Shown: positions 7,193 to 26,799 of the stretch, in pieces | Numbering within the stretch: the first letter of the stretch is position 1 | Layout of the letters: the number at the start of each line of letters is the position of its first letter | DNA from: Cyclobacteriaceae bacterium | GTDB lineage: Bacteria; Bacteroidota; Bacteroidia; Cytophagales; Cyclobacteriaceae | Length of the DNA: 64,000 bases | Assembly: GCA_028284125.1 (NCBI GenBank) | Contig: JANQSI010000004.1 | Coordinates: 362,038 to 426,037, forward strand | Direction of reading: 5' to 3' | The notes under the pieces: generated by a model | Told to the model about the DNA's origin: nothing | Databases searched by the model: none | What the model saw: only the letters and a program-made list of their open reading frames with translations | Translations under genes and position numbers: made by a program

Positions 7193-8658
7193 TCTTTATC
7201 CGTAATCCAGTGAAAGTTGATATTCCAATAAGCCAGCTTGAATTGTCTGGTAGAATCAGCTAAATCTGTCAAATCAATTCCTCTGTTTTTATAAGCATAG
7301 TCCGATTCTCTTTCATCAGGTTCACTAACGACAACTCTTGCATTGTACTTTCTAATAGGATCTTCAGTCTCCATAAACTGATGCCAAACAGGGATCGCCA
7401 GGTTTTTACTTTGCCAATTAGAGGAAGTCGCCCAAGTCCCAATTAGAACATCCTCCGGATTGGTTTGAGCAGCTACATATTCATTGATCTCAGCAATTGA
7501 ATATTGTCGGTTGTCTAGTGACCTGAAGTAGTGGTATGAGTTGATGAAGACCAATCCGGCAATCAATAATGCTGCTATGTATTTTAGAAATCTTTTGTTC
7601 TGAGCGAAAAAGATGTTACTTCCGATAATAGAGATTAATAATCCCATTGAAAAGTAGAGGCTGATCAAATACCGAACTGGGAGGTAGTCCATTGGAAGTT
7701 TATGCAACTCGAGAGCGAACCAGACCAGATTGAATATGACCATTCCTTTTAAATATCCACAGTACTTGTTTTTAGCCAAATTCGATACAGACCACACCAA
7801 GGCAGCTAAGAAAGTCATCGTAAAAGGCAAATAGCCTCTTACCAAGAAATTCCTGTTGATATTTTCTAAAAGACCAGTCGTTGAAATAGTAGTGCGCTCA
7901 AAAATGTTCGACTGCTGTGATAGGATGGAGGTCCATTCATTTCGAAAAGGCAAGTACCAGAAGAAAAGAAGACCTAAAGTGATTGCAGCAAGAATGATTA
8001 AGGATTCAATTCCTTTTTTTCTGAACTTGGTTTTGTCTTTTGTTAAAGAAACAAGGAAAATACTCAATGTAGGAATTGCTAATGCATAAATGAATTGGAT
8101 CTTAAACAAGGACGCACAAAGCAGAGAGAAAAAAGTGTAAAGAAGATGTCTTCTTTGATTGCTTTGAATGTAACTAGAGAAGAATAAACAGGAAATTAAA
8201 AGAAGAATTGCTCCGTAGATCTCGGCCATCGCGATGTGCGAATACTGATGAATAGGAAAGAACATCAGTGTTGTTAGCAAAACCATACTTGCGATTCCAA
8301 ACATCCGTTGGTAACGAGCAAGAACTAACAAAGAAGCAACTAAGAACATCAGTGTTGCCAGCCTGCCAACTTCCATCGATGTTCCGAAAATGGAAAAAGG
8401 AGTAAATAAATAAGCAGAGAGGAACGGGGTTTTTAGGAACGCATCACTTTCCAGTAAGTCGAAAGATTCCTGATTGACGTAGTTTCTTATTTGGCTGGTG
8501 TATAAACCTTCATCGGACCAGGAACCGCGACTACCTCCGGTTCTAATGTGTATGTCTGCATCGGCTGAAAGAAAAGGTAAATGAGAAAAGAACCATATCA
8601 GTAGCAGTGCAAAAAATAGAACCCGCGGTGCACTGTCTTTTCTTAAACTCATTCTCAT
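7186..8658 (-). CDS. multi-pass membrane protein, glycosyltransferase-39/ArnT-like
   Basis: Integral membrane protein of 490 aa with about ten hydrophobic helices from residue 13 to about 385, then a polar C-terminal domain. Motif features fit the GT-C fold (ArnT/PMT group): an early periplasmic loop with acidic residues (DADIHIRTGGSRGSWSDEGLYTSQI), AEIYGAILLL in a following helix, and a C-terminal soluble part with VLIGTWATSSNW. The substrate is not evident; such proteins usually transfer sugar from a polyprenyl-phosphate carrier to lipid or protein at the periplasmic face. The nearby ATG at 8652 is an alternative start two codons in. It overlaps the end of the DUF3109 gene tail-to-tail. Confidence 0.65.
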   Translation of the reverse strand: MRMSLRKDSAPRVLFFALLLIWFFSHLPFLSADADIHIRTGGSRGSWSDEGLYTSQIRNYVNQESFDLLESDAFLKTPFLSAYLFTPFSIFGTSMEVGRLATLMFLVASLLVLARYQRMFGIASMVLLTTLMFFPIHQYSHIAMAEIYGAILLLISCLFFSSYIQSNQRRHLLYTFFSLLCASLFKIQFIYALAIPTLSIFLVSLTKDKTKFRKKGIESLIILAAITLGLLFFWYLPFRNEWTSILSQQSNIFERTTISTTGLLENINRNFLVRGYLPFTMTFLAALVWSVSNLAKNKYCGYLKGMVIFNLVWFALELHKLPMDYLPVRYLISLYFSMGLLISIIGSNIFFAQNKRFLKYIAALLIAGLVFINSYHYFRSLDNRQYSIAEINEYVAAQTNPEDVLIGTWATSSNWQSKNLAIPVWHQFMETEDPIRKYNARVVVSEPDERESDYAYKNRGIDLTDLADSTRQFKLAYWNINFHWITDKDY

Positions 8659-26454: not shown

Positions 26455-26481
26455 GCTGGACCGGGAGGTTCAGCTTTTTTT
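26455..26481 (+). terminator. intrinsic terminator of mdh
   Basis: GCTGGACC-GGGA-GGTTCAGC (8-bp stem, one G-T pair) followed by seven T, 27 bases past the mdh stop. Confidence 0.9.
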
Positions 26482-26501: not shown

Positions 26502-26692
26502 ATGTTTCCCACATGGCCCCTGAAAGGATTCCAGGGGACCACACTACTCAAGTTCTCAACTTGAAGCTGATTTTCAGTTTAAGGACAAACCCTTTAACTT
26601 TGATCAACCGTTTAATAAAACGTAGCATGGATTTACCATGCTTGGGAAACATAAAACAAAGATGGCAATACTGAAAAGTGTTGCCATTTTTG
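26502..26692 (+). ncRNA. candidate structured non-coding RNA with its own terminator
   Basis: This is the 406-base gap between mdh and ppk1, and it contains no gene frame. Bases 26502-26511 (ATGTTTCCCA) pair perfectly with 26643-26652 (TGGGAAACAT), closing a 151-base domain. Inside are local hairpins in series: 26515-26540 (GGCCCCTG/CAGGGG-A-CC), 26548-26564 (TCAAGTT-CTC-AACTTGA), 26567-26577 (CTGA/TCAG), 26579-26597 (TTAAGG/CCTT-T-AA), 26609-26622 (CGTTT-AATA-AAACG) and 26624-26642 (AGCATGG-ATTTA-CCATGCT). The last directly abuts the closing stem, so the two can stack. After an A-rich linker, ATGGCAATAC/GTGTTGCCAT plus five T forms a terminator (26662-26691). I cannot name the family; it does not look like the rod of 6S RNA, SRP RNA or tmRNA. 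No promoter is obvious; processing of mdh readthrough is possible. Confidence 0.65.
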
Positions 26693-26778
26693 TTGGGTCT
26701 ACTTTCGGTCTAAAAGTGATCAGTCGAAATCTAATATCAGCTTGAAATATTGTCTAGATCTGGCTTAAGGAATCATCG

Positions 26779-26799
26779 GTTAACATGACAAATGTTAAC
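26779..26799. promoter_or_regulatory. palindromic operator at the ppk1 promoter
   Basis: GTTAACAT-GACAA-ATGTTAAC is a perfect 8+8 inverted repeat. It occupies the position where a -33 element would be, ending 22 bases before the -7 box at 26822. A regulator bound here would activate or block the promoter directly. Confidence 0.6.

What the first reader, a model, noticed from the sequence alone, without database searches (positions are those of the whole stretch)
26502..26692. Candidate multi-branched non-coding RNA between mdh and ppk1
Ten bases at 26502-26511 pair perfectly with 26643-26652. The enclosed stretch holds at least five ordered local hairpins. The last of them abuts the closing stem with no spare base, the geometry of coaxial stacking. 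An independent terminator (26662-26691) follows, and mdh already has its own terminator at 26455, so a second one here needs an RNA to terminate. I see no ORF and could not match it to 6S, SRP, tmRNA, RNase P or a known riboswitch.
Basis: partly seen in the sequence, partly recalled or inferred. Interest (0 to 1): 0.75.

Follow-up and report, generated by a model that had tools for sequence, protein, structure and literature searches.

The report
Multicopy antisense-controlled peptide toxin module
A stretch of about 190 bases, present in seven diverged copies in this bacterium's genome, likely encodes on the strand opposite to the one first reported a tiny positively charged peptide inside a self-folding messenger RNA, and together with a predicted short antisense RNA it would act as a toxin-antitoxin pair of a kind that the papers I could search do not report from its phylum.

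Summary
The structure is real, but the strand and the label "non-coding" are wrong. The genome holds seven diverged copies; one MAG of another genus in the family holds two; none was found in the other genomes sampled. At five loci congeners lack it. Across nine copies the minus strand carries an open frame for a cationic 30-36-aa peptide; substitutions follow its codons (0 of 1000 structure-preserving shuffles) and wobble pairs mostly favour the minus strand. A Bacteroidota -7 motif (at most one mismatch) lies 4 nt before the aligned start codon in 9 of 9, predicting a leaderless mRNA. Its start codon pairs with its own 3' end in the predicted fold; an early hairpin, exclusive with the extended form of that fold, forms first. 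Both pairings covary between copies. On the plus strand a -7 motif inside the ORF and a conserved terminator predict an 84-90-nt antisense RNA. This is the anatomy of a type I toxin-antitoxin module, closest in logic to aapA/IsoA. A 2025 paper states such systems were known only from Proteobacteria, Firmicutes and Tenericutes, besides its own cyanobacterial case. Transcription, antisense action and toxicity are untested, and the peptide is not a hydrophobic transmembrane toxin.

The parts
26502..26694 (.). Whole conserved module: closing stem at one end, terminator hairpin / peptide promoter at the other
   Evidence: Seven copies in G000 and two in G078; the 60 nt before the closing stem are not conserved, the terminator is
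26548..26652 (-). Peptide ORF, 34 aa (MFPKHGKSMLRFIKRLIKVKGFVLKLKISFKLRT), ATG at 26652-26650, stop TGA at 26550-26548
   Evidence: coding tests; peptide alignment of nine copies
26657..26664 (-). Predicted -7 promoter element of the peptide mRNA (CATCTTTG, one mismatch to TANNTTTG); predicted +1 is the A of the start codon (leaderless)
   Evidence: Same spacing in 9 of 9 copies, <=1 mismatch 9 of 9, exact 3 of 9; no TTTG at -33 seen
26502..26511 (-). 3' arm of long-distance helix P1, which pairs with the start codon region
26643..26652 (-). 5' arm of P1, containing the start codon
26624..26642 (-). Early hairpin hp5, just downstream of the start codon; its arms re-pair in the final fold (P1 extension and PX) in 6 of 9 predicted folds, not in the window copy's own
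   Evidence: hp5 in the 48-nt prefix fold of 9 of 9 copies; own-partner test 0 of 5000
26623..26630 (-). hp5 3' arm, alternative partner (PX) of 26539-26546
26539..26546 (-). PX partner segment between hp2 and hp1
26512..26515 (-). P1 extension segment, partner of the hp5 5' arm in the alternative fold
26609..26622 (-). Hairpin hp4
26566..26608 (-). Hairpin hp3 with internal loop
26548..26564 (-). Hairpin hp2, contains the stop codon
26514..26541 (-). Hairpin hp1, near the 3' end of the peptide mRNA
26595..26602 (+). Predicted -7 element of the antisense RNA (TAACTTTG, exact TANNTTTG) inside the ORF; -33 region TTTT at 26571-26574
   Evidence: Same place in 9 of 9 copies, exact 6 of 9, one mismatch 3 of 9; published consensus TTTG/TANNTTTG (PMC6847099, passages)
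26607..26691 (+). Predicted antisense RNA, 85 nt, complementary to the first 46 nt of the peptide mRNA
   Evidence: 84-90 nt in nine copies; not observed experimentally
26655..26694 (+). Intrinsic terminator hairpin and T tract of the antisense RNA; the same DNA holds the predicted peptide promoter

Best explanation
The element is likely a multicopy type I toxin-antitoxin-like module, in which the minus strand would encode a small cationic peptide in a self-closing mRNA and the plus strand is predicted to make an 84-90-nt antisense RNA that would silence it. Shown by sequence comparison: nine homologous copies in two genomes; a minus-strand ORF open in all nine, whose substitutions respect its codons; covariation of a long-distance helix that holds the start codon; covariation of an early hairpin that excludes the extended form of the final fold; a conserved plus-strand terminator. 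Predicted: the peptide mRNA starts at its start codon (leaderless) from a promoter inside the terminator DNA. While it is being made, hairpin hp5 forms right behind the start codon. When the 3' end emerges, the start codon is locked by pairing with it, so the full-length mRNA is inert. The antisense RNA starts from a promoter inside the ORF, ends at the terminator and covers the first 46 nt of the mRNA in the window copy. Untested: that both RNAs exist, that 3' trimming or loss of the antisense RNA frees translation, and that the peptide is toxic to its own cell.
For: Copies: seven in G000 and two in G078, found with a model built only from the G000 copies, at E 4e-34 and 2e-32. Coding: BLOSUM per differing codon 1.73 against -0.38 +/- 0.50, 0 of 500 column shuffles; 1.54 against -0.43 +/- 0.47 with base pairs kept together, 0 of 1000, and 0 of 1000 for the best of six frames. 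The aligned start codon stays in frame with the conserved core in 8 of 9 copies. Strand: z lower on minus in 8 of 9; A.C against G.U on plus is 18 to 10 in fixed helices, 6 to 0 in PX (my tally). Folding: start codon paired with the 3' end in the full-length MFE in 9 of 9, first seen at prefix lengths of 130-154 nt (prefixes from 120 nt on were tested); hp5 in the 48-nt prefix in 9 of 9. Own partner against other copies' partners: on average stronger, 0 of 5000 permutations as good for each of P1, P1 extension, PX and hp5. Promoters: -7 motif at fixed spacing on both strands, <=1 mismatch in 9 of 9 each, against 0.0078 of background sites. Gain: five loci without the element in congeners. Precedent: aapA/IsoA uses a 5'-3' long-distance interaction plus metastable hairpins, with several chromosomal copies (PMC6733600, Introduction and Working model).
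Against: No transcript or toxicity data. The peptides are cationic (net +5 to +11) and lack the hydrophobic membrane segment usual for type I toxins. One copy (C1a) has a 1-nt indel that puts its aligned start codon out of frame with the conserved ORF. PX is weak in copy C13 (-0.5 kcal/mol; all 8 other copies' partners pair better) and hp5 is weak in M1 (5 other partners better); for P1, some other copy's partner is at least slightly better in 7 of 9. In 3 of 9 full-length folds (win, C13, M2) hp5 stays formed instead of re-pairing. M1 folds better on the plus strand. hp5 itself shows more plus-type wobbles (6) than minus-type (3) (my tally). In the automatic alignment of seven copies the closing stem is only 50% paired and further pair types are not above shuffles (96 of 500). 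The minus strand has no -33 TTTG, and most transcripts in Flavobacterium johnsoniae have leaders (section heading and passages of PMC6847099). The plus -7 motif lies in conserved codons, so its conservation is not independent. I saw no clear 3' end signal for the peptide mRNA.
Confidence: 0.6

Rival explanations
1. The minus strand does encode the peptide under antisense and fold-back control, but the peptide is not a self-toxin: it is a small secreted, regulatory or RNA-binding cationic peptide whose expression must be tightly delayed.
For: Same coding and folding evidence; strongly cationic sequence, AlphaFold2 model a single helix of residues 5-33, mean pLDDT 81.5, pTM 0.35, from three sequences; no match to any Pfam or NCBIfam family at E <= 10 for the four peptides tested of nine.
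Against: The layered silencing (long-distance lock, early hairpin, antisense RNA), multiplication and patchy distribution are what type I toxin loci show; a harmless peptide would hardly need it.
Confidence: 0.25
2. A plus-strand multi-branched non-coding RNA between mdh and ppk1.
For: Plus strand folds well, covaries and ends in a conserved terminator; copy M1 folds better on plus.
Against: Codon-respecting substitutions on the minus strand, wobble asymmetry and lower minus-strand z in 8 of 9, and no conservation in the 60 nt upstream of the plus-strand 5' end, where its promoter would be.
Confidence: 0.08
3. A small non-autonomous mobile element whose folded ends serve transposition; ORF and terminator are incidental.
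For: Seven scattered copies, congeners without it at five loci; one G078 copy next to a split tyrosine recombinase gene (name from its motif, recalled).
Against: No shared sharp ends or flanking sequence beyond a weakly conserved tail after the terminator; arms of the closing stem differ between copies while the coding core is conserved.
Confidence: 0.05
4. A cis-acting leader or riboswitch of ppk1.
For: Lies upstream of ppk1 in the same direction.
Against: Neighbours differ between loci, and in 4 of 9 copies (C1a, C1b, C13, M2) the next gene is convergent or is another copy.
Confidence: 0.02

Closest known systems
aapA/IsoA type I toxin-antitoxin systems of Helicobacter (PMC6733600; Introduction and Working model read)
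   Same: Small peptide gene in several chromosomal copies; cis antisense RNA; mRNA inert through a 5'-3' long-distance interaction; mutually exclusive early hairpins formed during transcription, supported by covariation.
   Different: No Rfam match, and no Pfam or NCBIfam match for the four peptides tested; no Shine-Dalgarno to hide; predicted leaderless start codon locked directly; predicted promoter of the peptide lies inside the antisense terminator; peptide cationic, without a hydrophobic stretch; phylum Bacteroidota.
hok/sok type I systems (details recalled; named as typical type I in a passage of PMC6504116)
   Same: Fold-back inhibition of the toxin mRNA by its own 3' end, antisense RNA.
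   Different: No overlapping leader ORF noticed, peptide unlike it as recalled, antisense predicted to cover the start of the peptide frame itself.
msoT1/msoA1 of Microcystis (PMC12390103; passages read)
   Same: Type I-like locus outside the classical phyla.
   Different: Cyanobacterium, no relation looked for; characterised in E. coli, this one is not tested.
Bacteroidales-1 (6S) RNA, RF01693
   Same: Structured RNA of Bacteroidota.
   Different: 14.2 bits against a gathering score of 60: chance.

Membership tests
Type I toxin-antitoxin system | Toxin gene encodes a small peptide (under about 60 aa) | tested here: met
   30-36 aa in nine copies; coding test 0 of 1000
Type I toxin-antitoxin system | Antisense RNA antitoxin that pairs with the toxin mRNA | tested here: inconclusive
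   Conserved plus-strand terminator and -7 motif predict an 84-90-nt antisense RNA in 9 of 9; no transcript data
Type I toxin-antitoxin system | Start region of the full-length toxin mRNA occluded by structure | tested here: met
   Start codon paired with the 3' end in the predicted full-length fold in 9 of 9, helix covaries; prediction only, translation not tested
Type I toxin-antitoxin system | Peptide toxic on expression, relieved by the RNA | not testable with these tools
   Needs expression experiments
Membrane-associated type I toxins | Hydrophobic peptide with a transmembrane helix | tested here: not met
   Net charge +5 to +11; the longest stretch without K, R, D or E in any of the nine sequences is 6 residues; no TM predictor was run; definition from passages of PMC8309996
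aapA/IsoA family | Sequence homology to aapA/IsoA | tested here: inconclusive
   No Rfam match at gathering and no Pfam or NCBIfam match at E <= 10 for four of nine peptides; no direct comparison with AapA sequences was made
aapA/IsoA family | 5'-3' long-distance lock plus mutually exclusive early hairpin, both covarying | tested here: met
   0 of 5000 permutations for each of four helices; exceptions PX in C13, hp5 in M1
aapA/IsoA family | Sequestered Shine-Dalgarno sequence | tested here: not met
   In the predicted mRNA the start codon is at the 5' end, with no leader; Bacteroidota mRNAs lack SD (PMC6847099, abstract passage)
aapA/IsoA family | Activation by 3'-end trimming | not testable with these tools
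   Needs RNA mapping
Bacteroidales-1 / 6S RNA | Match to the covariance model | tested here: not met
   14.2 bits against 60

The most novel reading that the evidence does not exclude
A type I toxin-antitoxin family in Bacteroidota, a phylum from which I found none reported, built as two interlocked genes: the peptide's promoter lies inside the antitoxin RNA's terminator, the antitoxin's promoter lies inside the peptide ORF, and translation of a leaderless, SD-free mRNA is blocked first by an early hairpin and then by a covarying 5'-3' lock, the same solution that Helicobacter aapA uses, apparently reached independently.
Probability: 0.5. Interest if true: 0.85.

Novelty: new variant of a known kind. 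Interest (0 to 1): 0.72.

Why it matters
If true, it extends RNA-controlled toxins to a phylum that a 2025 paper's list of type I phyla does not include (PMC12390103, passages). It shows how such a toxin mRNA can be kept silent in bacteria that do not use Shine-Dalgarno sequences. Nine natural copies with compensatory changes make the early-hairpin-to-lock mechanism directly testable. It also warns that strongly folded "non-coding RNA" candidates can be small-peptide mRNAs on the opposite strand.

Tried and rejected
Rfam at gathering and at E <= 10: nothing credible. DNA comparison with relatives: 1 of 59, the own genome. Model R1 (built from the seven own copies): 2 of 245 genomes in the family, 1 of 390 in the order, 1 of 395 in the phylum, 1 of 395 in the class, the own genome counted in each; the samples overlap, and over 40 genomes the tool uses stricter filters. 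Genus of G078: 1 of 2. Exact pattern: 2 stretches in genome contigs, both of one Cyclobacteriaceae MAG, 0 in viral contigs. Peptide HMM: 61 of 390 family genomes at E <= 0.1, of which only G000 (7 matches) and G078 (2 of its 3 matches) are strong; the next two, at 0.0024 and 0.0038, were translated and I saw no such module there, the weaker ones were not inspected. Peptide HMM against viral contigs, one peptide (M1) against plasmids and phages: none. Riboswitch of ppk1: rejected on context. hp1 extension (the fourth possible pairing): matched -2.42 against mismatched -2.15, not supported. Literature: searches, with listings of 6 to 15 papers each (none); no Bacteroidota type I system seen in the listings or in the passages read.

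Dropped or limited: in the coding tests only the ungapped 87-90 columns were used. The C1a/C1b pair was left out of the flank comparison because they are tandem copies. Only 4 of 9 peptides went to Pfam and NCBIfam. C13 was not judged for an empty site, because only one flank was found. The segments used for P1 and P1 extension overlap by a few bases.

Full report
1. The observation. The closing stem (26502-26511 with 26643-26652) is exact, and the enclosed stretch folds far better than shuffles (z -6.97, 0 of 200). A hairpin with a T tract follows. Rfam has no match at gathering scores. The one wrong statement is that there is no ORF: the minus strand has one of 34 codons.

2. It is a repeated element. 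The same genome holds seven copies, 72-83% identical to the query copies over their aligned parts. They lie at C2:388534 (the window), C1:292321 and C1:292697 (tandem), C2:195108, C2:228056, C7:92505 and C13:9491. A covariance model built from these seven finds two more in a second genome of the family (G078, E 4e-34 and 2e-32) and none in the other genomes sampled: 2 of 245 in the family, 1 of 390 in the order, 1 of 395 in the phylum, 1 of 395 in the class, the own genome included in each count, the samples overlapping. A pattern scan of genome contigs found one organism, the MAG [quoted passage not shown], whose two stretches carry the same genes as those of G078.

3. It looks recently gained. 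mdh and ppk1 are 409 bases apart here, but 125 and 124 in two congeners, with no element; a third congener (G003) has a longer gap filled by other sequence and no match. At four further loci (C1, C2b, C2c, C7) both flanking genes were found next to each other in two or three congeners and the model finds nothing: 1 chance match at E 3.7 in 25 loci. C13 could not be judged, because only one flank was found. Repeated loss in the congeners is not formally excluded.

4. It codes, on the minus strand. All nine copies have an open frame there, ending near ...KGF.LKLK..FRFRT. In 8 of 9 the start codon (ATG or GTG) is at the same aligned place and in frame with the conserved core; copy C1a has a 1-nt indel and would use a later ATG. 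With columns shuffled, BLOSUM score per differing codon is 1.73 against -0.38 +/- 0.50 (0 of 500), and the synonymous fraction 0.352 against 0.193 (0 of 500). With base pairs kept together in the shuffle it is 1.54 against -0.43 +/- 0.47 (0 of 1000); for the best of six frames also 0 of 1000. The plus frame that shares the wobble position also scores above its null (0.955, 0 of 500; 0.67, 32 of 1000), as expected, but lower. Related copies are not independent, so these are not formal probabilities.

5. The folded RNA is mostly better explained as the minus strand. Folding z is lower on minus in 8 of 9 copies; M1 is the exception. In the helices with fixed columns there are 217 Watson-Crick cells, 18 A.C on plus (G.U on minus) and 10 G.U on plus, 8 of them at one column. 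PX has 6 A.C and no G.U, while hp5 has 3 A.C and 6 G.U (my tally). The terminator is the reverse: it folds better on plus in 8 of 9, C13 excepted.

6. Two folds, one early and one late. Four segments, hp5 5' arm (A), hp5 3' arm (B), P1 extension (C) and PX (D), give A:B or A:C plus B:D. For each of A:B, A:C, B:D and the outer P1, a copy's own partner pairs on average better than other copies' partners (means -7.8, -7.9, -7.8, -7.3 against -4.4, -4.3, -4.2, -3.9; 0 of 5000 permutations each). Single exceptions stand out: B:D in C13 and A:B in M1. C:D is not supported. None of the three pairings A:B, A:C and B:D follows from the other two, so both states seem selected. Prefix folding shows hp5 in the first 48 nt in 9 of 9, and the start codon locked to the 3' end in 9 of 9, first at 130-154 nt (prefixes from 120 nt on were tested); in 3 of 9 (win, C13, M2) the full fold keeps hp5. 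In the 48-nt folds the start codon itself is fully unpaired in 7 of 9 (C1a and M1 pair part of it), so that hp5 blocks initiation is an inference.

7. Promoters. Bacteroidota promoters are TTTG/TANNTTTG at -33/-7 (PMC6847099, passages). A -7-like octamer stands 4 nt before the aligned minus start codon in 9 of 9 (exact in C13, M1, M2; one mismatch in six), which puts +1 on that codon by the published spacing. On the plus strand TAANTTTG stands inside the ORF in 9 of 9 (exact in six, one mismatch in three). Background for at most one mismatch is 0.0078 of sites in 102 kb of the own genome, both strands. The plus RNA would be 84-90 nt. The minus promoter lacks a -33 TTTG, and conserved codons could explain the plus motif. 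The DNA of the terminator and of the predicted peptide promoter is the same, which could explain why the terminator is conserved in sequence (score 23.6 against 5.6 shuffled in the own copies).

8. Mechanism. An mRNA of a small peptide that is born with a hairpin behind its start codon, locks its start codon with its own 3' end and faces an antisense RNA has the logic of type I toxins. The Helicobacter aapA/IsoA work describes the same sequence of events (PMC6733600, Introduction and Working model). That the peptide is toxic is inferred from this anatomy, from multiplication and from patchiness. The peptide is cationic (net +5 to +11; predicted helix 5-33 at mean pLDDT 81.5), with no uncharged stretch longer than 6 residues, so it does not fit the hydrophobic membrane class (PMC8309996, passages).

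9. Novelty. The 2025 Microcystis paper states that type I systems were known only from Proteobacteria, Firmicutes and Tenericutes before its own case (PMC12390103, passages). My searches brought no Bacteroidota system in their listings, but listings are capped and most subscription journals are not held. I call it a new variant of a known kind, membership unproven.

Noticed in passing
L059 9190-10551 (G000:C1): The tandem pair of copies sits next to a CBS-domain gene followed by what looks like a PPK2 polyphosphate kinase gene (motif recalled), while the window copy is next to ppk1; two of six loci near polyphosphate kinases may be chance.
   Followed up: no
L018 331-1149 and 1577-2451 (G078): One copy in the second genome follows a tyrosine-recombinase-like gene (motif recalled) whose N-terminal part seems to lie in a separate frame, and precedes a two-gene pair that looks like a toxin-antitoxin pair.
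   Followed up: partly
L060 about 8010-8445 (G000:C2): At locus C2b two congeners (G001, G003) carry a small gene (looks like a gamma-glutamylcyclotransferase, by eye) where this genome has the element; short remnants of that gene seem to flank the element.
   Followed up: partly
L061 8043-8113 (G000:C2): At locus C2c the element starts about 20 bases after the stop codon of an FKBP-like gene and stands where congeners G001 and G004 have what looks like that gene's own terminator.
   Followed up: partly
L010 about 1050-1900 (G000:C1): A short hairpin-bearing segment precedes both tandem copies and recurs a third time, about 400 bases on, without an element after it (weak hit at C1:293005-293036).
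   Followed up: no
window 26779-26799: Perfect 8-base inverted repeat GTTAACAT-5-ATGTTAAC in front of ppk1, possibly an operator.
   Followed up: no
L020 1501-1667 and L025 1501-1668: Two copies begin within about 10 bases of the stop codon of an upstream gene in the plus direction of the element (an HTH-like frame that contains a stop, and an S41-peptidase-like gene split over two frames).
   Followed up: no
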